Shown one piece after another: positions 3-57,875 of a stretch of DNA of 64,000 nucleotides. The stretch covers positions 150,096 through 214,095 of the forward strand of contig LVLI01000156.1 in assembly GCA_001687465.1 (NCBI GenBank), written 5' to 3'. Position 1 is the stretch's first letter, and every line of letters begins with the position of its first letter. The notes beneath the pieces are model-generated. The model made no database searches, was not told the DNA's origin, and worked only from the letters and a program-made list of their open reading frames with translations. The position numbers and the translations under genes are program-made. This stretch comes from Halocafeteria seosinensis. Lineage: Eukaryota; Sar; Bigyra; Bicosoecida.

Positions 3-860
3 ATGCGATACTATGTCTATCAAAGTGGGGGTATTGGATTGTGGTCTTCGGAGGTCACCAATGTGCTAGCACAGGAATACGGAGAAACGTGGTGGTACTC
101 ACTAAAACCAATGACTTATTCCGAGGAAGTTCTGTCTCGGCGAATGCTACGGTTTGTCACCCACGGTGGCATTGTTCAGACTCAGTATGCTAACGTCATC
201 GTCACATGCGTCGAAAAACTTTTTGCTCGTTTGCTTTGGTATATCCGGGTAGTCTCTTCGGAAAGGGGGTCACATAAGAGCGCAGTAGGCTTGTCCACCA
301 CGTTGCATGAACCGGTTTTTTTACGCAAACAACCAAAACAATCTGAAGATACTACTCCTCACGGTAGTGTCTCCTTGGAGGTGTTGGCTCGAAGCGTGCA
401 GCAGTTGGGCATCGCATTGAATCGTATGGCATCAACCAGAGCTCAACTTGACGTCGTCGCGGAAGTAATGAATAGTACTAACAGTCTCAGCAACATCCGT
501 CAGAGATTGTCTGGCAGAAAGGGCTCCTACCAGGGACGTAGTCATGCTTCTGTGAGTATAGTGGTGAGCTTTCAACTCGACGGTGGACTGGCTAATGAAG
601 ACCCTGCCGATGAACTCAGCGGAATGAGGCATAGTCTGGCAAGGGCCCAGTTAAGAGCTCTATCAAGTTTCGGGAATATCAAATTTGCGCTAGAAAACGC
701 GATTTGGATGTGGTATATGCATGCACAATTTTCGACTGCACTGCGTCCAAGTGTAGAGTACATTGAAGAGATGGAGCGAACAAGCATGCCGGGAATAGCT
801 GATTCTAGCCCCTTTAGTGCGAAAATGCTTCGATTCCTCAAGCGGTTGTCCATGGAATAA
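3..860 (+). CDS. hypothetical protein, 3' part, likely partial at the window edge
   Basis: An open frame of 285 codons runs from the left edge of the window to a stop at 860. The frame is open at base 1-2, so the true start may lie outside the window. I do not recognise the family. The second half is helix-prone, with charged and Leu/Ala-rich stretches around residues 125-165 and 205-240, which looks more like real protein than the first half. A strong donor-like GTGAGT near 553 means part of the frame could be intron. The gene is convergent with the unknown minus-strand gene ending at 981. It could also be the last exon of a longer protein. Confidence 0.4.
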   Translation: MRYYVYQSGGIGLWSSEVTNVLAQEYGETWWYSLKPMTYSEEVLSRRMLRFVTHGGIVQTQYANVIVTCVEKLFARLLWYIRVVSSERGSHKSAVGLSTTLHEPVFLRKQPKQSEDTTPHGSVSLEVLARSVQQLGIALNRMASTRAQLDVVAEVMNSTNSLSNIRQRLSGRKGSYQGRSHASVSIVVSFQLDGGLANEDPADELSGMRHSLARAQLRALSSFGNIKFALENAIWMWYMHAQFSTALRPSVEYIEEMERTSMPGIADSSPFSAKMLRFLKRLSME

Positions 861-3529: not shown

Positions 3530-4143
3530 GAGGGAGTTAACCATCCACAGCCCCCACAACAGCACGTCCGACATTGTAGTCTTCAGAAGCCTTGATTAGA
3601 GAACGTGCAACAGAAATGACATGAGGAATCGAGGCAGGGTCTTCTACGTGTTCCAAAACCTTCTCGTATTCGACGTATCCGTTCTCAGTGTCTTCAACAA
3701 CTCGCCCAATGTTATAGCTCCTCAGCTCCTCCAAAATAAGGAGCAAAGTAGCCGCCAATGTCGACCACGATCACATCCTTGTGAGCGTCTTTTATCGAGT
3801 CCAAGAATTGGCAGCGCTTTTGCTTGTCGGCCAAAAGGGTTCGACCTCCCTTCTCCTCATTTTCCCCAAATAGGACAGCGGGGAACGTCTCTTTAAATCC
3901 ACTTACAAGCGGGAACCCTTCGGAATTGCGCCAGCAACAACACCCAGTCGTCTCAGAACCATTAGAAAGAATGGAATGGTAGTGGAGACCATATGCACCC
4001 CAACAACAAAACCTCGCCTCGTGTCCGCCAATACATCCTCATACCATAGGTAATACTGTGCTACAACCCGATGGACTTCCAGTGACGCGGGCCAGTTGCT
4101 TCAAATTGTTGTCGTAGTCTGCAGCCATTGCAGGTACACTCAT
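3530..4143 (-). pseudogene. adenosylhomocysteinase-like protein remnant with several frame breaks
   Basis: Read 4143 to 3530 on the minus strand, consecutive pieces of one plausible protein lie in different frames. They are a start with MSVPAMAADYDNNLKQL; a segment VVGVHMVSTTIPFFLMVLRR ending in AIPKGSR; a segment with DVIVVDIGGYFAPY; and a segment with VVEDTENGYVEYEKV followed by SVARSLIKASEDYNVG. The order and the DIGGYFAP and VARSxxKxxEDYxVG motifs recall adenosylhomocysteinase-like NAD-dependent proteins, known to me mainly from bacteria. Stops follow each segment, for example TAA at 3905-3903 and 3714-3712. The last break is explained by one extra base in the AAAA run at 3733-3736 (plus strand). 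The expected Rossmann segment (GxGxxG) was not found downstream. No intron model repairs the frames. Pseudogene is favoured over sequencing error because neighbouring frames exceed 1,000 codons without breaks. Confidence 0.5.
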
Positions 4144-4473
4144 TTTGAATCGAGCGGGGATAAATTGCACAAATCGATGCAAGAAGCCATGACAAAAGAA
4201 ACTATGAAAATATCACGTTTTCGTCAATCAAAGCGCCATCGCGCCATAGTGACGAAGCAAACATAGCTTTCACTCTGAACCTCATTTGTACACGGAATAT
4301 AGCCAGCCATGCATTGTACAGGTAAAGCTTCCGAATTGTAGATTGGAAAAATAAAAATAAAAGTGTATCAGATCGTTATTGTGTATCGACCACTGTGCTG
4401 TGAGAATACCTTAGCTTCTCATTCAGGCGCGTGGTTTGATCTCCTTGTTGAAGCTCCGCCAAGTCTGTAAAAC
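4144..4473. promoter_or_regulatory. divergent intergenic region upstream of RNase T2
   Basis: This 330-base gap separates the start of the minus-strand pseudogene from the RNase T2 start. It holds an A-rich tract near 4345-4365 but no convincing core promoter element or gene. It must carry at least the RNase T2 promoter. Confidence 0.3.
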
Positions 4474-5519
4474 ATGCGCTTCGGGGGCTCATCCAAGGGT
4501 ATGACGGTACTCACCGCCACATTGGCAGTGCTAGCCTTTGTAGGAACGCAGGCCGAAGGTGGTTGCTCTGGTACGGACTTCGATTACATGGCTATCGTGG
4601 AGCAATGGCCTCCAACTGCGGCCAAGTCTTTCCATAAGGACTCAAGCAATGACTATTTCACTCTACACGGTACGTGTCCACCACATTAGGTGCAGTTAGT
4701 GGTGCATTTTCGCTCCTTATCTCGTGGGTGGAGAGGGTCTGTCTGTCGTTAGTCCTGTGTGGAATGAATGTTCCTGGGTGACCCTAGGGACTAAACACGT
4801 GGAAGTATTACTACCTCGATGTGGGGCTTGTGCAGGTGTATGGCCCAATGATTTCAACGGGGATTATCCATGCAATTGTGAGGGGTCACAATTCGATCCG
4901 GACAAATTGAAACCGATAGAAGATCAACTGGATAAGTACTGGCCGTCGTTGAAATGCGAGGGCGACTCGTGCAATGACGACTTCTGGGAGCATGAATGGT
5001 CCAAGGTAAGGATGGTGGTGTATAGGGAGTATTCGATACAAGGTGTGCACTGGATATCTGAACTATCTGCGATGCAGCATGGAACCTGTGCTGTCGCAAA
5101 CATTAGTAGCCTGGATGGACAGCTGGACTACTTCAAGAAAGCCCTACAACTTCGAAACCAGTATGATCCCCTCAATGCGTTCCAGGCGGCCAACATCACC
5201 CCCACCAATGATCACGGATACAAAGTAAGGATTTGTAACAGAGAATGACCGACGTTGTCTTCTTCTGTAATGTTTTGCTCCGTTATTGCAGTATGACGAT
5301 ATCGTGAATGCCCTAAAGAACGAATTCAACGTCAGGACGGTCCTGCAATGCCAAGGAGAAAACGATATAGATGTGATAGAGATTTGCATCAACAAATCTT
5401 TTGGCGCTATTGATTGTCCCAGTCATTTGCAGGATACGTGTGATTATGACTACGAGGTGTGGCTACCTGCCCATACTGAATCACGGAGGAACCTTCGCGC
5501 TACTTCCCAATCACGATAA
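4474..5519 (+). CDS. secreted ribonuclease T2
   Basis: Predicted acid endoribonuclease of the RNase T2 family, which cuts RNA through a 2',3'-cyclic phosphate. Four exons (4474-4669, 4836-5005, 5078-5224, 5292-5519) give about 246 aa, the usual size. An N-terminal signal peptide (Leu/Ala/Val-rich to about residue 27) indicates export to the vacuole, lysosome or outside. Active-site block CAS I is FTLHGVWPN, formed across the first intron. CAS II is FWEHEWSKHGTC, formed across the second intron, which falls exactly between the Lys and the catalytic His. Both catalytic histidines and the Glu are present. Paired cysteines (CNCEG, LKCEGDSC, VLQCQG, CDYD) fit a disulfide-bonded secreted enzyme. 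The first and third introns also have canonical GT-AG ends. The gene is convergent with the carboxypeptidase gene. Confidence 0.9.
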
Positions 5520-5844
5520 ATCACACAACTTTACCGTTCAAGTACAAGAGTCCATAGCGACCATAAACTTAAATTGCGGTGAGGAAAAATACAGTCGTAT
5601 CTCAAAAGTGACATCTAAAGTTTTGTAATGAACAAACTTTTTTCGGACTCCCCCGGCATTATACCGGTGTTGTGTATGTACAATGCATCATGTCAATTTA
5701 CAGATCGAGGGACGTATTAATACACGACACTAGCACATCCTACTGTGTGGTAAAGTATCGTTAGCAAAATTGGCGAGCACTTGCGGTTGATTACTCAGCA
5801 GCTTCCATTTCCATTCTTCTAACTGCCGAGTCCTCCCGACTGTC
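5520..5844. other. intergenic region between convergent genes
   Basis: This gap holds the two facing 3' ends of RNase T2 and the carboxypeptidase. I see no gene or structured RNA in it. Confidence 0.4.
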
Positions 5845-8800
5845 CTAGCTCTTTTTCTTGCCTTTCTGGGGACGGGATCCAGCCTTTGCCGAGGGGGTTG
5901 ACTTCGATCTATTTTTCGTGCTCCCCTTCTTCGGTTCTCGCGGAGTATGCTCAATGCTCAATCTGTTAACTTCTGTGCGTATGTGAGACGCAGTCGAAGT
6001 TCCCATCAAATTCAATGGGGCAAGGTTATGGGCTGTTTGGATGACAGGATTCGGGGAGAAGGCTTCAGCAACCTCCTCGTCATCACCTTCGGCATCTTCG
6101 TATGATTCCTCGAGGGTATCGTCGTTGCCATTCTTTTCATCACCAGCTCCAGATGAGAAGCCGATGTGAAAAGGTGGAGGGGCTAACCATTCTAGGGCAC
6201 AAGCACTGGTTTCCTCTGCTCGGGGAGATTCTTCAGACCCTGAAGTCGTCTCTTCTTTCGCAGCATTCTGGAACGGTGGTATGGACACTAGCTGTTCAAT
6301 TGGATAAGGAAAATTTGGAACACGAGGAACGGCACCTCCGTCGGCTGCGCGATCCGGTTGCTCGTGATAGTACTCCAATAAATCGTCAAGGGCTTCACAG
6401 AAATGGTGCCCCAACTCTTCAAAATCCCTTGTTTGGAAATGATTGTGGGCGTTGGCTCCTTGGTCAGCACCTGCAAACGATGCCTCTATCGTGTAGCTGT
6501 TTACGAGCGGAATGTCCCGCCATACGGCAACTCGCGAACAGTCCGACTTCGACTTTTGAACTTTAAACGAGCAGTTGTTGGACGAAAAGTTGCAAGCTCT
6601 TCGGGCCAGTAGGCGCGGAAACAGCTTCGACGTCCAACCCTGTAAGGAGGGTTTGTCCACTTTTGGTTTACTTAACGGGTCCTTGCTGTAAGCGGAGGCT
6701 GAGGATGGTTCGCACCCGAACATAAAAATATTCTTCTTTCTAGAGTGGCCATGGAAATCACAGTATAGGATAACATTAGACGTATTTTGGCAAGTTTCAA
6801 TAAGTTGCTTCAAATTCCAAACTGGTGGGACCTGCTCGATGCTTGGTTCACTCCAATTACGATTCAGGTCGAGTCCTGCCAAATTCGTTCGGTGATGCCC
6901 ATTGATCACTCCATCCGGATTCAAAAACGGTACTACTTTGATGATACACCGCGAACGAAGGCGGGATGCAATCGGAGCAGAAGATGTGAGGAAATCTAAT
7001 ACTCCCCGCATCATCCAAGAAGCGTTGCTCTCGCCGGGATGTACCCGCGCTGATAGAATAATGTAAGGGCGAGCATGCAGCAAGGAGTTTGGAGGGACCG
7101 GTTTCTTCCTGGTCGGAATGCGCGACAGTTGCATTGGAACAACTTTGCATCTAGGGGACTCCTCAAAAGGCTCTGAACGGCGGATACCTCCATCAGGAAG
7201 TCCTGAAGGAAAATCTGTGATAGTGAATAACGGCACGGGATTGCCTGCCAAAGTATGGCAAAGGACACTCCGACAAAATATTGAGGAACTGAATAACGAA
7301 CCGTGAAGTCCCAAGAATTGTGGGGGGTGTTTAGTACCATTTTCTTCCTTTCCGAGCTCGCGGACTTGAGGAAGCGGGAGCGTGCAATGCTGGGAAGGGT
7401 GAAGTTGATCTTCCTTGTGCTTATCGGTGCAGAAGAGATTGTAACTTGCCATAGTTTGTACACCGTTCTTGTCAGCACCGGCACCACACATACGACGAAA
7501 CACTGGTAACACAAGACTGGAAGGTAAACCCTCACAGGAATCAAGAGGATGTTCCTCAACAGGCACATGTACACTGTTGGCAAGTCGCAAGGCCCGATGC
7601 TGCCATCTCAATGTGTCAAAACTCAGGTCTGTATAGGTGTAAGGGTAACAGTAAGCGAAGAACGCGTGTGTAGTCTCAGGCGGAAATTGGACGCGCCAAC
7701 TCTCCGTGTAGAGATGTTGAGTTTCCAGGTCCTCAGAAGGAGCCCCTTCCGACGCATCTTCGGTTACCCCTACTTCTCGCTTCTGCTTAGCAAATTGATT
7801 GGAGTAGTACACAATATCAAAACCTAGCCGCTTCCATCCCACACCTGCTGGCGGTCTTGGCCAGAACCTACTCGATTCAAGTTGTTGTGTTTCCCCGTCT
7901 GTTCCGTCCACGAATACCAAAGGCCTCATTCCGTCATTAAAACTACTTCCGCCTTTCTCAAGGTTAACTATGTGGAATGTATAAATGGGAGCATCGTTAC
8001 CATTACTAGTTTCCATGCCAGTAACTCGGAAAAAGAACCACTGCGTGTGACCAGTCGTGTTCGTATCGGGTTCCAGTAGTAGTTCATACTCTCGCGGTCC
8101 AACTCGGACGGCGCTTCTAAGATTGCCAGATTCAAAGCGCGATTCAAACTCTAATGACGGGGCCATTTCGTTGTTCTTGAAACGGTTTGCCTCCACAACT
8201 CCTTCTTGTAGGCACTGTCTGAGATTTAGACCGATCCTCGACGCACTTGGCCACAGACCGGGGCTATCAAGATGGGAGGTGGTGGCAGACGCCTGCTCTG
8301 TTTTTACCGACGATGACAGTGAATATGTGCGAGGAGTTTCAGCCTCTGCTAGACGCTCCTGCAACTCCTCACTGGTGGAAACCGGAGTCTCCTCACCCAT
8401 CTTCTCGTACTTACGTGCCACGTGACGACCAGGTAAAGCTTGTACAGGCAAGGCTAAAGATTCCGCTTCAGCAGCAGAGTTCTCGTTATCTTGATTGTAG
8501 AGGTCGTAACAGACCACTCCAAACGTAGTATCTGCTTTCCCCGAAATCCTTGCCTTCAGCTCATCATATTCATCACCTGAATTTTGAGAATTCTCAATAA
8601 CAGTGACCTGCCCATCATACTGCTCCATAAGTTGCAAATCGCGAGCAAGAGTCGCTACACGCGCTAAAGCCCGTATCATGTACTGCTGCGACAAACGAGA
8701 TCGTAAATCGGAAGACAGTAATGTCATCGGTTCTTCTGGTAGAAGACAACATGTGTGAAGTACCGTTGGGATCTGGTCATTACGCAGTTTCCAAGCATCC

Positions 8801-47250: not shown

Positions 47251-49776
47251 CTATCTACCAATTGTTCTCGAAGTCTCCAGAGGGTCCAAGCAGATAGTAA
47301 GGGGATCTAACTCCTTCCCCTCGTCGATTTGTTTGTTTAAGAACGCGTTAAACTCCTTCAAATTCTTAGCCTTAAGTAGACCTTCCCATGATGTTAGGTC
47401 CCCAAGCAAGGACATGAAAGCAGAAAGACCGCCCTGAGAGTACCGGCTACTCGCAAACTGCGTCTTCTCGCGACCATTCTGCCTCAACCAGGAAATCCCA
47501 TCAAGTGTACTCCGCGTAATTTCGGAGTCTTTTAGCATAAGATGCCGTAGTATGCCATGCGCATATTGAAAACCCTTAGCACGGCAAGCGAAAGCTGCTC
47601 CTACGGCGGGAATAAGGGTAATCCACGCCCTCTCCTCTGGCAAACAGGATTCTTGGGGACAATATCCCCACTGACCGCTGCGAACAGGCCAAAACCGGGA
47701 CACTCGTTCATCCTGCTGCGAACTGCACCGTTGAACGTATTTACCAAATACGTCCAACAGTGCTAAAGAGCTTGCGGGAACGTTAAATTTGCGTTTCCCT
47801 TTTTCCCCATGGATCAGCCTTGACACTCCTCCCACGGCAAACCACGTCCTCAAGTACAATAAATCAGCTTGGAGCTGGATGAGTCCAAAATATGACACAG
47901 CTGACCCATTGGTTAGAGACTGGAACTCCTGTTTCCATCGCTTCCCAGGACTCTTTACAGCGGAAGTAGCCAATTTGAAGCACTTGAAGGGGTCACGAAG
48001 GAATGCGAACAAGGAGCATATCAAAGATGACGCACACTGCTGTGAACAAACCGCACACACATCATTGCTCAATTGGGCGCAGTGCTGAAGTAACGGGGCC
48101 ACGCATTGCTCAATAATTTGTACCATAAAGCGGGAGGGTTTTAAACGCAGAGACATTGAGTACAACACTTCAGAACACCAAAACGGTGTATGAGGAGCTT
48201 GTGGTTCAACATTGCGTTTCGCCTGATTGAGAATATTGTTTATCTGGCACAGGTAACCGGCGACAGTATTCACAGTTTCGCTACCTTTTATCGACTCGTA
48301 GTTTTCTGTATCTAGCTGAAGAGATCGTTCCCCAATCTCATAGACTTGATTGCTGCCGGCTTCCTCTTTTCGATCGACCGAGGATTGTAAGAAAAGCGAA
48401 AACGAATGCTGAGCGATTGTCTGGCTGATCCATGAGCGAAGTCGGTTGATTATCCGTTCTTTGTACGACTGAAGTAGTTCATATTGATGCTTCAGGTGAG
48501 ATGCAATCACCCCAGTGTCGTACAGGCCCATCAGAAGGTCTCCATTCAATCTCAATAGGTTTCTCTCAGACGCCCTCAGCCTTATCAAGGGGAAGGCCTC
48601 AGGATACTCTCCTGAACTCCCCATGAGGCTAGGATCACCTAGGGAATCAGTGGGGGCAATGGGAGTACGATTAGGGTCTCCATCGAGGTACGGGTTACTT
48701 CTATTCTTTCTAAAGGACCTCACTTTCAAAGGCCCTGTCCTTACTTCCTGTCCGTACGAATCATCTTCCGAGTCGTATCCGCCCGACAGGTGACCACTGG
48801 ACGATGGTGTTCGTTCCACTTCCTTAGCTAGGTACGATGATAAACTGGAGGAGAGTAAACTGGGACGATCAATAACCAATTCGGACATGCTTGAGCCCCA
48901 TGTTTTCTCCCCATACATTTGCGTAGGTTTAGACGTCGCATAAATGGAATCACAGTACGGGGCGAAATCAAACTCCGCGGGAGCAACCTGAGACTGTACT
49001 TTGCCTCCAGAACATGGACTCCACCACTTCGGTTTCGGGATTTTACTGGTAACAACGTTGGCATTATGGTAACCACCCCATAGCACTCTCAAGGGAGGAA
49101 ACGTTTTCATGGGATGGACTGCTTTGTGACATCCTTGAAGCTTACTGGCTAGCCACGTACTCTCCGACTCTCCTAAGGTAAACCATTCACCAGATTTGCA
49201 GCCGTCTATCTTGACATCATCCCTCTCACCAAAGGAGTAATTGAACAGAATTTCCGATCCTCTATCCACTGTGTTGGCAAATATCATGAGCTTGTCGATA
49301 TCCGTTTTCCATCGACTTGCTAACTCTCCGCCTTCCCATGAAAGAGATTTACAGTAGAAATTGCTCTTTTCCAGGGTCATGTTATGAAATGCAGTGGAAA
49401 CAAACAAGACGGAAGCAAGTTGGGTGTCTTTAGGTCTGCTTCGAGGGTTGTTTCCACCCTTTGCACTCATACTATCAATGCGTTTTTCGACATAGCGTAG
49501 CAAGGGGACAAACGACTCGGCAATGGCAATTGGCATTTCGAATTCCTCTGTTTTTCCACAGGAGGAAAGAGAGGACGCCTTTGGGTCTTCTTCTTCAGTA
49601 AATGGAGACCATAATCGGTCCGGAAACTGAAGTCTATCCGAACGCATGTGTCGTACAGCCTGTCCAATGGCTAATTTCGTTTCCACGAAGTTGCGCACAT
49701 CGTTCTCCGTTTCCTCCCCACTCTCTTTGACAAAGGACGATGAGGATATAGAGGAAGGCGTCTCATCACTAGCCAT
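47251..49776 (-). CDS. hypothetical helical protein, 841 aa
   Basis: I do not recognise this family with confidence. A single open frame of 841 codons with good codon character excludes chance. The N-terminal region (residues 1-330) is mixed; residues 330-400 are Ser/Pro/Asp-rich and probably disordered; residues 410-841 are mostly helical. The late segment VSYFGLIQLQADLLYLRTWF followed by a LLDVFGKYVQ helix resembles the C-terminal helical bundles of vesicle-tethering-like or CCDC142-like proteins. That is only an impression. No membrane segment or signal peptide is seen. It diverges from the kinase-phosphatase gene across about 1 kb. Confidence 0.7.
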   Translation of the reverse strand: MASDETPSSISSSSFVKESGEETENDVRNFVETKLAIGQAVRHMRSDRLQFPDRLWSPFTEEEDPKASSLSSCGKTEEFEMPIAIAESFVPLLRYVEKRIDSMSAKGGNNPRSRPKDTQLASVLFVSTAFHNMTLEKSNFYCKSLSWEGGELASRWKTDIDKLMIFANTVDRGSEILFNYSFGERDDVKIDGCKSGEWFTLGESESTWLASKLQGCHKAVHPMKTFPPLRVLWGGYHNANVVTSKIPKPKWWSPCSGGKVQSQVAPAEFDFAPYCDSIYATSKPTQMYGEKTWGSSMSELVIDRPSLLSSSLSSYLAKEVERTPSSSGHLSGGYDSEDDSYGQEVRTGPLKVRSFRKNRSNPYLDGDPNRTPIAPTDSLGDPSLMGSSGEYPEAFPLIRLRASERNLLRLNGDLLMGLYDTGVIASHLKHQYELLQSYKERIINRLRSWISQTIAQHSFSLFLQSSVDRKEEAGSNQVYEIGERSLQLDTENYESIKGSETVNTVAGYLCQINNILNQAKRNVEPQAPHTPFWCSEVLYSMSLRLKPSRFMVQIIEQCVAPLLQHCAQLSNDVCAVCSQQCASSLICSLFAFLRDPFKCFKLATSAVKSPGKRWKQEFQSLTNGSAVSYFGLIQLQADLLYLRTWFAVGGVSRLIHGEKGKRKFNVPASSLALLDVFGKYVQRCSSQQDERVSRFWPVRSGQWGYCPQESCLPEERAWITLIPAVGAAFACRAKGFQYAHGILRHLMLKDSEITRSTLDGISWLRQNGREKTQFASSRYSQGGLSAFMSLLGDLTSWEGLLKAKNLKEFNAFLNKQIDEGKELDPLTICLDPLETSRTIGR

Positions 49777-50767
49777 GTTACTGTGTTAGCGTTATATCCC
49801 TCCTGTACAACCAATTAGCCTCCTATTTGTACGACACAAGCTATCAGTCGAGCCAGCGCAACTCCGTGTCTATCAAAAGCAAACAGTCACATGGACTAAA
49901 TTACCCAGCATGCAGTCTTGTTGGCATTCAAAATTTACTCAGAGCGACTACCATGTGGAACTACGGTATCAACAACGGTGTATAAGTCTGTCTATGCTTT
50001 CTCCGGCTCGTGAGTCACGAGGTTCCAACTGCCCTGCAATGCCACAGCCCTGGCCCTGGGCCAGGGGGCACCGAGACCACTTCAAGAATCTAGATACAAG
50101 TTGCTATCATACAACACAGGCTGTACCATTCTATAGACCACAACTGTATAGCAACTGCGCCGTCACCTTGGATCTTTCGCTTCCTTTAAATTAAATGGTG
50201 GAAGTACGATTTGCGCCTACCTTGCAAGTTGCACCTGCTGCGGCGTTCCATAGGCTAGCTGGTGGGGTACGGTGGTAGCACATACCGTAGGCTCTAAGGG
50301 TTGGAGACATCTCGTTGGTTGAATTACTGTGCATCGTGGACCGAAGGATGCGTAACCTTGCACTATTTGATGCAACTATAGATTCATTTCCCTGGTCGTG
50401 GAGTGGACTTTCAAGAGGTCAGACAATCGTAGTGCCAGTAGTGTGATGCGCATCGGCTTAACGCTGGAATCCCGAGTGCTGGATAACTTCCACTTCAAGC
50501 AGTGCTGTGGCTGCCGTCACGGATTTCACGTTCCAGAGCGAATAAGACTCATAATGTCCACAATATATGTTTTTGTGCATGTGTTTATGGTATGTTTGTG
50601 CCGGTGGGAAGCCATCAAGTGTTGCATTGTTTCTGCACGTGTATGGTATCCAAACTGGGTGGTTTCGCAGTTTTGGCCCTCTTGAGCGCTTCAACGACCC
50701 CCACATCTCTTGCTTTATACGCTCTTCCTGTTGCTCTGAGACAGCCTAGGTTGACGAGTAGCGGACA
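49777..50767. promoter_or_regulatory. divergent intergenic region with perfect inverted repeat
   Basis: 991 bases between two divergent genes, without a supported gene. It carries the inverted repeat listed at 50048-50066. Short frames near 49910-50750 overlap on both strands and show no motif. Confidence 0.35.
50048..50066. repeat. perfect inverted repeat CCCTGGCCC-T-GGGCCAGGG
   Basis: Nine-base arms flank one central T. The element is GC-rich against a balanced background and sits in a promoter-sized divergent gap, about 700 bases upstream of the kinase-phosphatase start. It could be a dimeric factor binding site or chance. Confidence 0.7.
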
Positions 50768-53700
50768 ATGGGCTGTTCACCCTCGAAAGACGGGGGGCAT
50801 AAAAAGCCTGGAGAATCTGTAAGCCCTGAAAGCTCTATGAGCAAGCAGCAGACCAACGGCGTGGATTCTCCCACTGATGAAGATAATGGAGACACCACAG
50901 CCCGAACTACAGGCAATGAAAGCGGTAGTATAAGCGCCTTCAGCCTGGATCTGAAAGAGCAAACGCCCAGGCAGCAAGGAGCAAGTGATTCACCCGATCT
51001 GACTGCAGCGCCGCCTCCAGGAGCAGCACCGAATTTGGGTCGACGCAAAGATCCCAATGCTCTCGTTTTGAACCAACCTCAGCATTCTAAGAGCACGAGC
51101 AGTGATTCGGACTTGGAGGATGAAGTAGAACATGAAGTGGCTGTAAGCCAGCAGCAGCCAAAGGAAGAGGAAGGTCATCGACTCACCGCAAAAGTGAGCT
51201 CGGGATCTAGCATTGGCACTGATGCAGAGGAGACAGAAAATGTCACCAATGAAGATCACACCAAGGAAACAAAGAAGAATACTCACATGAAAGGTGGGAC
51301 CTCTAGTAGTGATAGTGATACTGATGAACTCGAGCAGGGGGAAGAGGCAGAAGGACTGGAGGACTTCTTGGATCAGTCCGATGACGGAGAAGATGATGAA
51401 GAGGTTATAGAAGAGGGAAACACCCCACGTTTTGATGATTCACTGGATGATGGTTTTACTAGGGGTAGAGAGTGGATGAGCGTTATCAAGCACGTATTTG
51501 ATGAAGCTCAATTGAGTGAGGCGCAGCAGTCCCAGTTTGTCGACTCATTGGAGATACAGAATTACACTGAAGGCGAATACATTGTGAAACAAGGTGAAAT
51601 AGGTCAGAGTTTTTTCATAATTGAAAGCGGAGAAGTAACCGTGGAAGAAGATCGAAAGAAAGATGGGAGCAAACGCAATGTCCTGTCAAGACTATATCCG
51701 GGGGTAGGTACTCATATTCGTTTTGCAGCTGGCAGTCGAAAGATATGTGTATTATGCATTCTCGCCGCAGCATCATTTTGGAGAGTTCTCGCTCATTGAT
51801 GAGCAACCTCGTGTAGCTTCTGTTATCGCCAGGAGTGATGATGTAAAGTGCAGATATATCACTAAGGAGAAATTTGTTCAGTTGCTCGAGGTTAGTGGTG
51901 CTTTCACCGAAGGTCAAAAACGCATTCAGCGCTGTACCTAATCATTGTAAACGTCGCAGCAAGATCGACGCTTTCAAGATGTCATTTTTAAACTCCGAGA
52001 TGAAACAGAAAAAACACGAAGGAAGCGCGCACAAATGATGAACCGCGGTTCTGAGAACACTAGGCAAGTCTGGTTTGTTAATGCTCAGAAGACGACGACG
52101 ACCATTACGAGTAATCTACAAAAGGACAAAGACTCGGAGGGTCGAACTCGTATCAATAACTACACTGTGCTTAAGAAAATCGGAACGGGGGCATATGGGG
52201 AAGTATCTCTTGTTCGAAACGAGGATAACGGGGAAAACTTTGCGATGAAAGTTGTCGACAAAGCGAAACTGCGCAAAAAGCGTATTGGTTTGACGGAAGA
52301 CCAACTCCTTCAAGAGGTTGAAGTAATGAAGAGGCTGCGACATCCCAACGTCGTGGCGATGCTGGAAGTGATAAATGATCAATCAGGAAACAAGCTGTAC
52401 ATGATCCAAGAGTTGGTTGACGGCGGCCCCATTATGGATGAGGAGTCAACTAGTTCTTTGCCAGAAGAAGAAGCCAGAAAATACTTTCGGCAAATCTTAC
52501 GCGGCTTGGAATATATGCATTTCCAGCGAGTTGTCCATCGAGATATAAAACCAGAGAATATTCTTGTTTCTAAGGACGATACAGCCAAGCTTGCGGACTT
52601 CGGTGTATCAACAGTCATCCCATTTACTGAAGATGAGCTAAATGGAATACAAATGGGCGAATGGGGTAAGGAATTCCACGTTGACGACTAAAATCCAAAT
52701 TAGAGCCAACTATACCGTTTGATTCGATACAGAGGACTATGACGATACCTTGACTGAGGTGCAAGGCACTCCCGCTTTCATGGCTCCGGAGCTATTTGCT
52801 GAAGTCCCTCGCTACGGCGGCCGTGCCGCCGATATTTGGAGCCTTGGGGCTTCGTTGTATTTGTACGTTGAATGCCTACCGCTACTCTACAATGCTGATG
52901 TGTGTTCATGGTCAAATACGTCCGCAGAATGGTGGTTGGTCGACCGCCTTTCAATGCTAGCAATCAAATACTCCTCGCTGAGAAGCTGCTCAGTGACGAA
53001 TCGCCGACGTTTCCTAATGGAATGAGTCCTCATTTGCGTAACTTACTGCAGCAGATGCTATCCAAGAACGCTTCTCAAAGGATTTCCCTGCCGAATATTA
53101 TGAAGCATGAGTGGACGACCCACGAGGGGACAGAACCTCTGCCTCAGACAAATTATATCCGAATTGGGATGGCTCCGCTGCCAAAGAAAAGTCGAAGCAA
53201 TGAAGACGACGGCAACGGAACTAATGACAACGATAACGCTGGGACTCAGGACCCGTCGCTGCGACGTCGAGGGCGTCGTAGACGGGCGAGCATAGTGAAA
53301 CTACCTCATCAAATGTCTGATGAGGCAGAGCCATATCCTCCTCAAAGTGGCCGTCGCCGCAATTCGCACATTACTCCAAGGAAGGAGGAAGACGGTACCA
53401 GCGGGATGATCCAACGAAACAGCAGTAGAGCTCTCAAACGTGGTGACTCAGGGAGCCGCAGTCCGAAAACCCTTGCTAGAGGAGAGTCAAGGCGTGGAAG
53501 CAACACTGACCTGGTGCAAAAGGACTCCAAACGAGATCTCCACAGAGATTCTAAACGGGATTTGCGGCGGCGGCAAATGGAGCTCGTCCAAGGCCATGAA
53601 GGACTGTCAGAACGAGATAAAGACATGCTTTTGGAACAGCAGCGTGTTCCGCTGCATAACTCCAGGGCGGATGTGACCGTGGAGGAAATGGAAATGTATG

Positions 53701-56345
53701 ACGGTTCCTACTTTGCCTCGTCGGAGAAAAGAGATAATACGGCGGGTGAAAATGACCAAAGTGCTTCTTCATCTTCAGTATCTGGCTCCCGAAGTTCGGA
53801 CCATGTGGGCAGTAACACAGGCTTAGACTATAGTAGTCAGGGTCGTTCCTCTCAGGAGTACGGGAATGGACAAGACGCGCCGAAGAATTCCAGTAGTAGT
53901 AGCCGGAATAAAGCCGAAAGTGAGCTCTCTCGAACTTCATCAGCTGTTAGTTACGCGAGCTTAGGTGACGGTGCTAGTCATAATGCTTCTTCCACTGACT
54001 TGGGTAGGGCGCTGTACGGCTCCTATAGTCCGGCGAATCTATCACAGAAGCGGTCTAACCGTAGCATGGCGTCTTACATCTCCAGCAACAACTCAGATCT
54101 CTTAGATCGTCATCGTTCAAGTTCCGCGATGTCTTGGGATCCCCAGGGCCGTCGGAACACGGGGGATGAACATCACATAAGGACGTTCGACACTGTTAGA
54201 GAGTCATCCTCTCCAACAGCCCATCGCAAGTTGTCGGCTGCTTCTCGTAACAATGATTTGCAGCGTTCTTACTCCGATCTTCATCTGCGTTCCTTTATAG
54301 ATGGAAGATCCCCTAAGAATGAAGACTATGCAACTCCCAATTCTGATGATAAAGCTGGCTCGCTAAAATCTGTAACTTCTGTTGTCTCGGTGACAACTCC
54401 AGTCGATGACACCCCCGAACGACCGTCTGTGTCCGTCGCGTCTCCGCGACAGCCCAGTGGAACGTCTCCCCCTTCGGTGAACTTTGGAGGCCCTCGAAGA
54501 CGCTCGCTGGGAATGGTTCCTTTGTCCTTCTGTGAGGATCAGCCGCCGCAAAATGGTAAGGAAAATGGCTTTTGTTCACGGAAATATTCTCATCTATTCT
54601 CAAATTTCATTGTTGTGTCTGTTTGTCCAGAAGAGGATGGTACAAGCTCAGAGTCCCGTAAAGGCTTATCGACTGGAGCCAAATCTATGCACAATCTAGC
54701 TCTAGGCCCTAAGTCGGCTGGCGTGCAGTCAAAGTCGCTCCAACGACACAAAGATTTTGTCATGCTGACGGAAAATGTTGGGACATCGGAAAAGGGCTCG
54801 CTAAAGAAGAAGACGGTGATCTTCCGTGCCCGTGGGTCTGGGTCGCTCTCAATTGCTACCCCACAATGGGGCTCTGACAAGGAAGGATTCTCCGACTATG
54901 ATGCTACTGACGTTCCGCAGGATTCTGAGGAGGGTAAGGGAATAACACGACAAGAAAGTTCAGGGAAAGCGTGCCTTGGAGTTCCGCGAGTTGGAGAAGC
55001 AATCGAGGAAGATTCAGACAGCGCCGAAATCTCTTCGTTGGAAGATGAGGGTGGCTTCGAAGATGTCACTGACAAGCTAGATGAAGTTTTGAATGAGGAG
55101 CACGACCAGAATGTCGAAGATGAACAACTAGAACCACTTTCTGATGTCGACATTGAAGGGGACGACGAAGAAGAATACGTCGATTCGTCGGAGGAGGAAG
55201 AAGAAGATGTTGCACACGGGAAAGCAAGCGATGCTTTACCTCTGCGGGGTATCACTAATCTGCGAGCTGCCCAGGATGCCCGGAATTCGTTTCTGAACGT
55301 CGTATTCGGAGTAGCAGAGGACCAGGGTAAACGGAGCACTATGGAAGATAGGGTGATGGTAAGTTTAAGTCGGTGGTCGTGATTCTATATCAATGGGATG
55401 TCCGTGTATATGTTTGTGGTACGCCCTGTTCAGGCATTGGTAGAATTCAATGAAGCCCTAAACTTGGGACCTGACGCCCCGCACGAGGCCTTTTTTGGTG
55501 TATATGACGGACATAATGGATCACATTGCGCCCAGTATTTGGCCGAGAGGCTTCACGCAAACTATGCATCATATGCTACAGGTGGTGAAGATCCTGCTGA
55601 AGCTCTAATTAGCGCATTTTGCGACACCGACGACCATTATTGTCTTCAGCAACAGGAACTCGCCAACAGTGCTGGACAGGATTTCCAATTCAGCGGCGCT
55701 ACGGGTTGCACTGTTGTCGTTCGTAAAGGAGGAAAGATATCGCAGGAAGCAACGGGGAACGAGGGTGACCAGGAAGCAATGCTTGTATATGTAGCTAACG
55801 CCGGTGACTGCAGAGCCGTGCTCAGCTATCGGGGTATAGCATATGACCTCTCTGAAGATCATAAAGCCTCGAGAGAAGACGAACAAGAAAGAATAACGAC
55901 AGCCGGCGGTTATGTGCATAATGGTCGTTTGATGGGCATCCTAGCCGTGTCCCGCGCATTCGGAGATATTGAATATAAACAGTTAAAGGAGAAAGCATGG
56001 GAAACTGAATTTGAGGATGACCCCTTGACAGCAGAGCCGGACGTTCGGGCAGAAGTTGTATCAGCGGGTAGTGAGTTTATCATTCTGGGTAAGTGTCCCT
56101 CCAATGTTGGATTATCTACCGTTTTACTTTTTTATGAAATCTAATTGACGCCTTGTATGTCCGTTTCAGCCTGCGATGGAGTGTGGGACGTTCTCAGTTC
56201 CCAACAAGCCGTCAACTTTGTCCGGCGAAAGCTTGTGGAGCAGCAAGACATTCAAAAGGCTGCAGAGGAGCTGGTTCAGAAGGCAATCTCCTTGAACAGT
56301 GCTGATAATGTGTCCGCAATTGTGATTGGATTTGTCAGCGAATGA
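50768..56345 (+). CDS. cyclic-nucleotide-binding / CaMKK-like kinase / PP2C phosphatase fusion
   Basis: Eight exons join in phase (50768-51703, 51771-51890, 51960-52665, 52733-52862, 52928-54555, 54631-55358, 55434-56088, 56170-56345), about 1,692 aa. It starts MGCSPS, an N-myristoylation plus palmitoylation signal, then an acidic disordered region. A single cyclic-nucleotide-binding domain (about residues 235-350) has HHFGEFSLIDEQPRVASV: the phosphate-binding Glu and Arg are present, but the residue after Arg is Val, where PKA has Ala and PKG has Thr. The kinase (about 420-695) has GTGAYGEV, FAMKVVDKAKL, HRDIKPENIL, DFGVS and GTPAFMAPELF, closest by eye to CaMKK. A 700-residue Ser/Arg-rich linker, including DSKRDLHRDSKRDLRRR, leads to a complete PP2C (about 1395-1692): RSTMED, FFGVYDGHNG, NAGDCRAVL, AVSRAFGD, ACDGVWDVL and SADNVSAIV. 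Splitting into two genes is unlikely, because the PP2C motif RSTMED ends exon 6, continuous with the linker. Confidence 0.88.
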
Positions 56346-56355
56346 CCGCTTTCTT

Positions 56356-57861
56356 TTAGCTATACACGCGCACTGCTACCGCGGGAAGTAGCCATTTTAA
56401 GGCCGTTCGCGCAGTAGTACTAAGGGTCGAACTGCACGGTTTCTGTGCGTTCTGTTCCCGCAAATATACCTTTGCAAAGAGCATTGATGCAATAGCACCT
56501 AGTACACATCGACCTCGTATGTCTAGAAGCAGATCCTGTATTGTTGTACGCCGCAGGAAACTCACTATTGCTCTCGGAATAACGTAAAGGGATAATTCCG
56601 AGCGTCGAGCAGGCCGTTCCAACAGAATGCTGAAACCACATAAAAACGAACCCAGGACTACGCCCCATGATGAGTCATAATGAATCAAATTCCGCAATGT
56701 GCAAATAGACGACCATATTATAGCGATGAAGCTAGCGAGAAAGGCGCTGCTTCGTGTTGAGCTAATCGAGCAATTTTGAAGCATCCGAGCGAAGTCTTCC
56801 CACTTATTCGGAATGCCAGCGGAAACTAGAGCAGCAGCAAATTGAAGCGGCATGTATAATCGCATCGCAGAGGCAAATCCGGCTGCCCATCTGTTGACGA
56901 TATTCCTCGTACAGCTGCTTCCATATTCAGAATGGACAACGGAGCATGGAATGAAACCGGTTCCAGGATCACCCCATGCCGGTGGCATGCGCCGGTGTCG
57001 ACAATACTCCTCCAAATCATTTGCATGAGTCCCATACGCTCTTGAACCCTCTTTGAAGCCTCTGAGAACCTCCAGGAGTCGTTCATCTATCCGAGCTAAT
57101 GATGAAATCCATTCACGGTAAAGTTTCGGTAGTACTTGCGGGTGATAAAACCAGTCGTACATGATTTCATGACATCCTAAGACAAAAAATACAGTGGAAC
57201 CGTGGCGGCGCATCAACGTTTTCAATTCACGATTCCTACTATCCAGTACAAGGGAAGAGCTGTATGAAGCCACCGCTCGCACAACTAGATCCAGCGAGAA
57301 TCGTAACGGGTTGAGTTCGAACTGTCGGTGGCGTTGGTTTTTCTGTCCATTGGTAGTTGTACTTGTACCTGAAGAGTTTCTACCTGCGTAAAGTGCTATC
57401 ACCATCAAAGAAGCCGCTAACGCAGGTAGTGTTTCTGTGGGGACCCATTTCAAGTTTGGCGACAGCATCTCCTGCGAGTCATTTGCATGTGTAGATTGTT
57501 TCGATTCCTCATCGTTCGCTGAAGGACGCCACCGGTGGCGTCTACCTGTGTCGGAGGACGGGGAAGGGCGTTTCGATTCAATGTATGCCAATAATTCATG
57601 GCGAAGAACTCCAAAGACGGCGCTGTAGAGTCCCACAGCCGCGGCGAATCTCAGATTCCCGGGATTGCCGACCACAGCTCGGTAGACAAGTGCCACTGGT
57701 TCTGTCCACGTGGTGGCGGTCGTACGTGTAGTCGTCCTCCGACGTCCTCTGTACAAGGTTGAAACCAGTGTGAATAAGGCATGCAAGCCGTAGGCCTCCA
57801 GCGAGCGCCGTAGAGCATGTGCTAGAATGTTTTTTCGGACAGTATTGTCCATTATAGACAC
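56356..57861 (-). CDS. TMEM135-like membrane protein
   Basis: Single exon of 501 aa resembling TMEM135, a mitochondrial/peroxisomal membrane protein linked to fat storage and mitochondrial dynamics in animals. The shared block is GSSCTRNIVNRWAAGF, YMPLQFAAAL, a run with RSSAFLASF, ICTLRNL, and FLCGFSILLERPARRSELSLYV followed by PRA. Several hydrophobic segments lie around residues 90-110, 140-160, 330-350 and 385-405. The N-terminus has a Thr/Arg-rich stretch. It lacks the full second half of animal TMEM135 that I would expect, so the relationship is to the conserved block only. The start lies 14 bases from the start of the divergent ecdysoneless gene, and the stop lies 10 bases from the kinase-phosphatase stop. 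Confidence 0.7.
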   Translation of the reverse strand: MSIMDNTVRKNILAHALRRSLEAYGLHALFTLVSTLYRGRRRTTTRTTATTWTEPVALVYRAVVGNPGNLRFAAAVGLYSAVFGVLRHELLAYIESKRPSPSSDTGRRHRWRPSANDEESKQSTHANDSQEMLSPNLKWVPTETLPALAASLMVIALYAGRNSSGTSTTTNGQKNQRHRQFELNPLRFSLDLVVRAVASYSSSLVLDSRNRELKTLMRRHGSTVFFVLGCHEIMYDWFYHPQVLPKLYREWISSLARIDERLLEVLRGFKEGSRAYGTHANDLEEYCRHRRMPPAWGDPGTGFIPCSVVHSEYGSSCTRNIVNRWAAGFASAMRLYMPLQFAAALVSAGIPNKWEDFARMLQNCSISSTRSSAFLASFIAIIWSSICTLRNLIHYDSSWGVVLGSFLCGFSILLERPARRSELSLYVIPRAIVSFLRRTTIQDLLLDIRGRCVLGAIASMLFAKVYLREQNAQKPCSSTLSTTARTALKWLLPAVAVRVYS

Positions 57862-57875
57862 ATTGTATCTACCTT

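What the first reader, a model, noticed from the sequence alone, without database searches (positions are those of the whole stretch)
50768..56345. One predicted protein joins a cyclic-nucleotide sensor, a CaMKK-like kinase and a PP2C phosphatase
All eight exons join in phase, and the kinase and PP2C motifs are complete. PP2C-CNB-kinase proteins are known in plants, but with another order and an AGC-type kinase. Here the order is N-acylation signal, CNB, CaMKK-like kinase, long linker, PP2C. A self-opposing kinase/phosphatase pair under cyclic-nucleotide control at a membrane would be a compact signalling switch.
Basis: partly seen in the sequence, partly recalled or inferred. Interest (0 to 1): 0.85.

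Follow-up and report, generated by a model that had tools for sequence, protein, structure and literature searches.

The report
Kinase–phosphatase fusion with nucleotide sensor
A protist gene encodes one long protein that carries a cyclic-nucleotide sensor, a kinase and an opposing phosphatase; the same layout recurs in water moulds and other relatives, and its long linker holds a conserved small domain that may point to its target.

Summary
Eight exons (50768-56345, +) encode 1692 aa: MGC N-terminus, one CNB, a CaMKK-type kinase, a 695-aa linker and a PP2C. A transcriptome-derived protein matches all but two residues, so one mRNA carries the whole.

The implied rarity does not hold. Of 187 proteins returned by two searches, 113 join kinase and PP2C and 92 have CNB-kinase-PP2C in this order, including oomycetes and Cafeteria. 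Public names are 'cGMP-dependent protein kinase' and 'CAMKK/CAMKK-META', and an oomycete phosphatome paper lists kinase+CAP+PP2C proteins with single mRNAs.

Added here: a paralogue with the same layout in the same genome; catalytic residues kept across the family; two linker islands, predicted as helices and strands, with near-invariant LxRxxDFxM[VL] where present (63 of 113); relatives with a receiver domain after the kinase.

Best reading: an acylated, cNMP-gated bifunctional enzyme setting phosphorylation of one substrate, most likely an AMPK-type activation loop (AMPK alpha and beta genes are in this genome). Sequence, layout and transcript are shown; acylation, ligand, gating and substrate are inferred.

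The parts
50768..56345 (+). whole CDS, 8 exons: 50768-51703, 51771-51890, 51960-52665, 52733-52862, 52928-54555, 54631-55358, 55434-56088, 56170-56345; 1692 aa
   Evidence: transcript-derived P0001 with 2 residue differences
50768..50785 (+). N-terminal MGCSPS, candidate N-myristoylation/palmitoylation signal
   Evidence: sequence; motif rule recalled; 26 of 92 proteins with CNB+kinase+PP2C (P0001 included) match MG...[STAC]
51557..51965 (+). cyclic-nucleotide-binding domain, aa 264-354 (interrupted by introns 1 and 2), cassette FGEFSLIDEQPRVAS
   Evidence: Pfam 69.4 bits; in the kinase-proximal CNB the cassette Glu is in 85 and the Arg in 90 of 92
52161..53114 (+). CaMKK-type protein kinase domain, aa 420-693 (introns 3 and 4 inside)
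   Evidence: Pfam 220.7 bits; best PDB match CaMKK2; tree
53562..53693 (+). linker island 1, aa 843-886 (LRRRQMELVQGHEGLSERDKDMLLEQQRVPLHNSRA...)
   Evidence: conserved in alignment of 36 linkers; profile hit in 59 of 113 kinase+PP2C proteins; two helices and a strand in the AlphaFold model of relative P0144
54726..54866 (+). linker island 2, aa 1206-1252 (LQRHKDFVMLTENVG...KKTVIFRA)
   Evidence: L1210, R1212, D1215, F1216 in 36 of 36 aligned linkers (linkers chosen for the motif); profile hit in 63 of 113, between kinase and PP2C in 63 of 63; beta-hairpin, block pLDDT 78-88, in model of P0144
55305..56312 (+). PP2C phosphatase domain, aa 1399-1682 (introns 6 and 7 inside)
   Evidence: Pfam 195.6 bits; best PDB match 'Protein phosphatase 1A'; Asp and Gly of DGH in 92 of 92

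Best explanation
One polypeptide that works as a cyclic-nucleotide-gated bifunctional kinase/phosphatase. The N-terminus is probably acylated and holds it at a membrane. The CNB next to the kinase binds a cyclic nucleotide and shifts the balance between the active CaMKK-type kinase and the active PP2C, which share a substrate brought in by the conserved linker mini-domain. By kinase class, the likeliest substrate is the activation-loop threonine of AMPK/SNF1-type kinases: CaMKK-group kinases phosphorylate it and PP2Cs remove it. Shown: gene structure, a transcript-derived protein of the whole length, domains, catalytic residues, conservation of architecture and linker islands, AMPK alpha and beta genes in the same genome. 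Inferred: acylation, ligand, direction of gating, shared substrate, AMPK.
For: One mRNA. Kinase Lys 91 of 92 (1 gap), alpha-C Glu, HRD Asp, Asn and DFG Asp 92 of 92; PP2C DGH Asp and Gly 92 of 92, the other metal Asps 88, 79 and 77 of 92 with gaps in the rest. Kinase precedes PP2C in 113 of 113 joined proteins, although the linker runs from 298 to 1815 aa in the 63 with island 2. A second CNB-kinase-PP2C gene lies on C251 of the same genome. AMPK alpha with loop LKTSCGSPNYAAPEV and AMPK beta are present, as are 38 class III cyclase matches, exon pieces counted apart. After the window gene (367 bits) and the C251 copy (142 bits, 48% identity), the next own-genome kinase scores 128 bits at 35% and has an AGC-like loop (loop type recalled). 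CaMKK beta and the yeast SNF1-activating kinases phosphorylate, and PP2C dephosphorylates, AMPK/SNF1/SnRK1 kinases (PMC4033248, passages). Rice PKG: cGMP raises kinase and lowers phosphatase activity (PMC11638329).
Against: No biochemical data for this branch in what I saw. The residue after the cassette Arg is Val here (T 37, V 18, N 17, L 11, S 4, I 3, M 1, gap 1 of 92), so ligand identity is open; 7 of 92 lack the cassette Glu (Q 6, D 1). In Arabidopsis PP2C19 the kinase and CNBs are dispensable for the tested function (PMC11775391). Only 26 of the 86 proteins that begin with Met show MG...[STAC]; some gene models may have wrong starts. Island 2 is missing by profile from 50 of 113. PP1 as well as PP2C dephosphorylates AMPK (PMC4033248). 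AMPK as substrate rests on kinase class only.
Confidence: 0.45

Rival explanations
1. Self-resetting kinase: the PP2C mainly dephosphorylates the kinase's own activation loop (GTPAFMAPE) or linker sites, so that cyclic nucleotide gives a timed pulse of kinase activity rather than a two-way switch on a shared substrate.
For: Loop Thr kept in 90 of 92; aa 721-1380 are 17% Ser with six R[RK]x[ST] sites; linkage over a flexible linker would favour intramolecular action (inference).
Against: A conserved, predicted-folded part of the linker suggests a third partner; no direct data either way.
Confidence: 0.25
2. Only one enzyme is the output in vivo: the PP2C acts and the kinase/CNB serve as docking and regulation, or the reverse.
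For: Arabidopsis PP2C19: PP2C domain necessary and sufficient (PMC11775391); two P. infestans proteins with PP2C and cNMP domains have inactive kinases (PMC3019232).
Against: The catalytic residues of both enzymes are kept across the family, unlike the kinases of those two proteins.
Confidence: 0.25
3. Two neighbouring genes wrongly joined, or an assembly artefact.
For: Long linker without a Pfam domain.
Against: Transcript-derived protein spans all of it; linker islands conserved; same join in 113 of 187 proteins and in the C251 copy.
Confidence: 0.02

Closest known systems
Oomycete CNB-CNB-CaMKK-PP2C proteins (named 'cGMP-dependent protein kinase' or 'CAMKK/CAMKK-META'; some are probably among the five STKc+CAP+PPM proteins of P. 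sojae in PMC10925823, not matched one by one)
   Same: domain order, CaMKK-type kinase, catalytic residues, both linker islands, often an MGQ... N-terminus
   Different: two CNBs there, one here; cassette R-T-A in most of them, R-V-A here
Cafeteria roenbergensis FNF29_05360 (P0007)
   Same: one CNB (matched in two pieces), kinase, islands, PP2C; same clade of the kinase tree, 96/76
   Different: 44% identity over CNB+kinase; its model starts MDDSS, no MG
Plant PKG / PP2C19
   Same: CNB, kinase and PP2C in one chain; rice protein bifunctional and cGMP-controlled
CaMKK-REC-PP2C proteins (P0112 of Diplonema papillatum; P0041 with two kinases and two REC; five more with PF00072)
   Same: CaMKK-group kinase joined to a PP2C further on
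   Different: receiver domain after the kinase, no CNB found
Animal CaMKK and fungal Ssp1-like kinases
   Same: kinase group
   Different: no CNB or PP2C found in the rows used here; Ca/calmodulin control recalled

Membership tests
CNB-CaMKK-PP2C architecture | CNB, kinase and PP2C in this order on one chain | tested here: met
   order in 92 of 92
CNB-CaMKK-PP2C architecture | kinase groups with the other members | tested here: met
   tree: 32 CNB rows plus 2 kinase+PP2C rows together, 90/95, below the tool's star level; window clade 96/76
CNB-CaMKK-PP2C architecture | linker islands 1 and 2 | tested here: met
   not universal: island 2 in 58 of 92 CNB members
Plant PKG/PP2C19 type | order PP2C-CNB-CNB-kinase | tested here: not met
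Plant PKG/PP2C19 type and PKG family | AGC kinase domain | tested here: not met
   no AGC kinase among the 60 PDB rows listed of 343; own-genome kinases with AGC-like loops fall outside (98/92); class names recalled
CaMKK / SNF1-activating kinase group | kinase domain closest to CaMKK | tested here: met
Metazoan CaMKK | Arg-Pro-rich insert after beta-3 | tested here: not met
   absent by reading the sequence (feature recalled)
Metazoan CaMKK | Ca/calmodulin binding | not tested
   no assay, no search made
PP2C/PPM | R..MED, DGH, DGxWD, DN metal-site motifs | tested here: met
   KRSTMEDR, DGHNG, DGVWD, ADN present
Cyclic-nucleotide receptor | phosphate-binding cassette Glu and Arg | tested here: met
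   E317, R326
Cyclic-nucleotide receptor | binds cAMP or cGMP | not testable with these tools
   needs binding assay

The most novel reading that the evidence does not exclude
The linker mini-domain is a dedicated docking module for AMPK: its near-invariant LxRxxDFxM[VL] has the spacing of the AMPK substrate consensus (recalled) with Asp in place of Ser/Thr, i.e. a built-in pseudosubstrate, followed by an RVxF-like strand. The protein would then be a self-contained cNMP-operated on/off switch for AMPK activation, an arrangement I do not know from AMPK control elsewhere (recall, no dedicated search).
Probability: 0.12. Interest if true: 0.78.

Novelty: new member of a known kind. Interest (0 to 1): 0.45.

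Why it matters
A kinase and an opposing phosphatase in one chain would let one signal set a phosphorylation level without two separately regulated enzymes. A CaMKK-type version, separate from the plant type, recurs over stramenopiles, and a version with a receiver domain occurs in Diplonema and others, so the join is old or recurrent. The conserved linker module gives a concrete handle for finding the substrate, and the AMPK idea is testable in vitro.

Tried and rejected
Two-gene or artefact model: rejected on the transcript-derived protein and the conserved linker. Plant-type PP2C-CNB-kinase: rejected on order and kinase class. A plant-type gene elsewhere in this genome: PP2C and CNB matches share a contig on C107 (this gene), C209 and C65 (there over 75 kb and 140 kb apart); C251 joins them once its intron-split CNB is read. 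Intron-split genes can be missed this way, so absence of a plant-type gene is not shown.

Linker island readings. (a) LIR/Atg8 motif (DFVML against a recalled ULK1 motif) and (b) RVxF PP1 motif (KKTVIF): the patterns sit in the island in 60 of 63 and 58 of 63, but also elsewhere in the linkers (49 and 26 hits in 37,880 aa), and AlphaFold makes the island a hairpin rather than a free motif, so I favour them less. (c) AMPK-like pattern with Asp: 60 of 63 in the island, 1 hit in the rest. The three patterns were chosen after seeing the alignment, so these counts describe conservation and are no test of function. The 36 linkers were picked because they showed the motif: 35 of the 72 kinase+PP2C proteins, plus the C251 copy. 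The island profiles came from those 36 and the 46 rows were chosen as island-bearing, so 63 of 113 and the invariant columns depend on that choice; by profile 50 of 113 lack island 2. The C251 copy was in the island profile, so its island hits are by construction. PDB searches with the island found nothing meaningful (best E 0.51 and 0.29, a pectate lyase chain). Foldseek with the P0144 model: the 50 rows listed of 1976 are PP2C-type phosphatases.

The 187 proteins are the best 120 rows of each of two searches (4807 and 748 proteins passed E 0.001), P0001 itself included, and the second query was itself a family member; the fractions are no census of nature.

AlphaFold of P0053 (966 aa, CNB-CNB-kinase-PP2C): pLDDT 83.5, pTM 0.61; no inter-domain errors or coordinates are returned, so domain packing was not judged.

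Organism: Halocafeteria seosinensis is my guess (the nearest named single-CNB relative is Cafeteria; the rest is recall). Searches for the transcriptome accession found no paper naming it. Not verified; the report does not depend on it. Passages of PMC5447177, PMC10072465 and PMC12223298 were looked at and not used.
Full report
OBSERVATION. The gene model is sound. Eight exons join in phase through seven introns of 65-81 nt, all GT..CAG, into a 1692-aa protein. ATG 50768 is the first in-frame ATG after an in-frame TAG at 50759; 4 of 7 introns carry an in-frame stop when read through, introns 1 and 4 shift the frame, and intron 5 does neither. Pfam places cNMP_binding at 264-354, Pkinase at 420-693 and PP2C at 1399-1682. 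The protein search returned P0001, a EukProt protein from transcriptome contig GECG01010040.1, 1692 aa, differing from the window at two positions. That is independent evidence for the splicing and for one mRNA across the linker, subject to the chance of a chimaeric assembly; I did not see reads.

KINASE CLASS. With the kinase domain as query, CaMKK2 and CaMKK1 fill the four best PDB rows (205-185 bits), followed by CIPK23 at 165, MARK2 at 157 and STK11 at 142; no AGC kinase is among the 60 rows listed of 343 (class names recalled). In a maximum-likelihood tree of 68 kinase domains the 32 CNB rows form one group with two kinase+PP2C rows whose kinase part is cut at the N-terminus (90/95, just short of the tool's star level); animal CaMKKs and fungal Ssp1-like kinases (83/85) sit in the same larger, unresolved group; eight of nine other kinases of this genome, including three with AGC-like loops, stand apart (98/92), the ninth (L026) being a long branch inside the unresolved group. 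For the CNB the best PDB rows are the Toxoplasma protein PCR12 and cGMP-dependent protein kinases (133-128 bits, partly summed over several CNBs), then PKA regulatory chains (82 bits and less); for the PP2C 'Protein phosphatase 1A' (112 bits).

CATALYTIC STATE. Over 92 proteins with the three domains: kinase G-loop Gly 89, Lys 91, alpha-C Glu 92, HRD Asp 92, Asn 92, DFG Asp 92, loop Thr 90, APE Glu 90; PP2C R 85, MED Asp 88 (4 gaps), DGH Asp and Gly 92, DGxWD Asp 79 (13 gaps), DN Asp 77 (15 gaps); kinase-proximal CNB cassette Gly 92, Glu 85, Arg 90. The gaps leave up to 15 PP2Cs unjudged at the C-terminal motifs. Neither enzyme of the window protein looks dead. This separates the family from two P. 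infestans proteins with inactive kinase, PP2C and cNMP domains described in PMC3019232 (passages).

HOW WIDESPREAD. Two searches gave 187 different proteins (best 120 rows each). 113 of 187 have kinase and PP2C, 92 also a CNB; kinase precedes PP2C in 113 of 113 and the order is CNB-kinase-PP2C in 92 of 92. Named sources include Cafeteria roenbergensis, Saprolegnia diclina, Aphanomyces, Phytophthora, Pythium, Albugo, Peronospora and Chrysoparadoxa, and also records named Batrachochytrium salamandrivorans and Symbiodinium, which lie outside the stramenopiles and may be foreign sequence; I did not check. Oomycete members have two CNBs; the window protein has one. P0055 and P0140 show a receiver domain between kinase and PP2C (29.7 and 25.6 bits, below the 30.2 cut-off) and P0164 one after the kinase (33.7 bits; no PP2C in that 719-aa piece). 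Diplonema P0112 has kinase-REC-PP2C without CNB; P0041 has two kinases, two REC stretches and a PP2C. Whether this shared order is common descent was not resolved: the REC group's place in the tree is open.

SAME GENOME. The assembly (30.6 Mb, 605 contigs) holds a second copy on C251: CNB in three pieces (L044 2986-3530), kinase (3768-4656), islands 1 and 2 (5470-6186) and PP2C (6739-7690), one after the other; its kinase is 48% identical in the best matched part. It groups with P0036 and P0017 (99/96), so the duplication is probably older than this species. AMPK alpha (C403, loop LKTSCGSPNYAAPEV, adenylate-sensor match 29.6 bits with its neighbours against a cut-off of 27.1), AMPK beta (C360) and 38 class III cyclase matches are present.

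THE LINKER. It is rich in Ser (17% of aa 721-1380), but an alignment of 36 linkers shows two islands. Island 2 has L1210, R1212, D1215 and F1216 in 36 of 36; in a 46-sequence alignment the matching R, D and F are among only 11 invariant columns. These sets were chosen for the motif (see Tried and rejected). By profile island 2 is in 63 and island 1 in 59 of 113 kinase+PP2C proteins, island 2 in 58 of the 92 with a CNB. AlphaFold on P0144 (a relative lacking the kinase N-lobe; overall pLDDT 68.9, pTM 0.47) gives island 1 as helices 193-211 and 218-226 plus strand 237-245, and island 2 as strands 274-283 and 290-299, with block pLDDT 66-90 and 78-88 among linker blocks mostly below 50. So the islands may be one small alpha/beta domain split by a variable loop. 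I did not see contacts; that they fold together is inference. PDB sequence searches with island 2 gave no credible match.

MECHANISM. Precedent: the rice PKG carries a PP2C domain; cGMP promotes its kinase and inhibits its phosphatase activity (PMC11638329, passages summarising Shen et al. 2019; the original is not held). CaMKK beta and the SNF1-activating kinases phosphorylate, and PP2C (also PP1) dephosphorylates, AMPK/SNF1/SnRK1 (PMC4033248, passages). From these I infer a cNMP-set balance on an AMPK-type loop, with the linker islands as docking part. The near-invariant LxRxxDFxM[VL] has the spacing of the AMPK substrate consensus (recalled) with Asp at the acceptor; this is the boldest reading and is not shown. 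Ligand: the residue after the cassette Arg is Val here and Thr in 37 of 92, among them the oomycete rows printed; by recall Thr there favours cGMP, so specificity is open.

PRIOR KNOWLEDGE. PMC10925823 (passages) reports five P. sojae PP2Cs with kinase and CAP domains, single mRNA each, and calls them bifunctional without an assay of these five in the passages I saw; PMC3019232 (passages) lists PP2C on four P. infestans kinases (AGC, CAMK, OTHER). The passages that I read neither separate a CaMKK type from the plant type nor mention the linker. Searches for CaMKK+PP2C domain+stramenopile+kinome (0 papers) and for fusion terms (15 listed of 25 and of 41) showed no functional study in the listings; the library lacks most subscription papers.

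VERDICT. Interest comes from the untested bifunctionality, the CaMKK lineage and the conserved linker part.

Noticed in passing
L044:2986-7690 (own genome C251): Second CNB-kinase-PP2C gene of the same genome; kinase loop reads GTPAFQPPE and the CNB is split by introns so that the six-frame Pfam search did not list it.
   Followed up: partly
P0055, P0140, P0164; P0112, P0041: Receiver (REC) domain after the CaMKK-type kinase both in CNB-bearing proteins and in kinase-PP2C proteins without CNB, hinting at a shared ancestral order.
   Followed up: partly
P0035, P0091 (named Batrachochytrium salamandrivorans), P0176 (named Symbiodinium): Members of the kinase-PP2C family in records named after a chytrid fungus and a dinoflagellate; foreign sequence or transfer, not checked.
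   Followed up: no
P0058, P0059, P0061, P0066: Proteins with linker island 2 but no PP2C match; may be truncated gene models.
   Followed up: no
L046 (C403:22001-25500): AMPK alpha gene with the loop LKTSCGSPNYAAPEV and a C-terminal adenylate-sensor match.
   Followed up: partly
window 56359-57873 (-): 505-aa open frame with a sub-threshold match to the TMEM135 N-terminal region (25.1 bits, cut-off 27).
   Followed up: no
window 47254-49785 (-): 844-aa open frame without a Pfam match at E 0.01.
   Followed up: no
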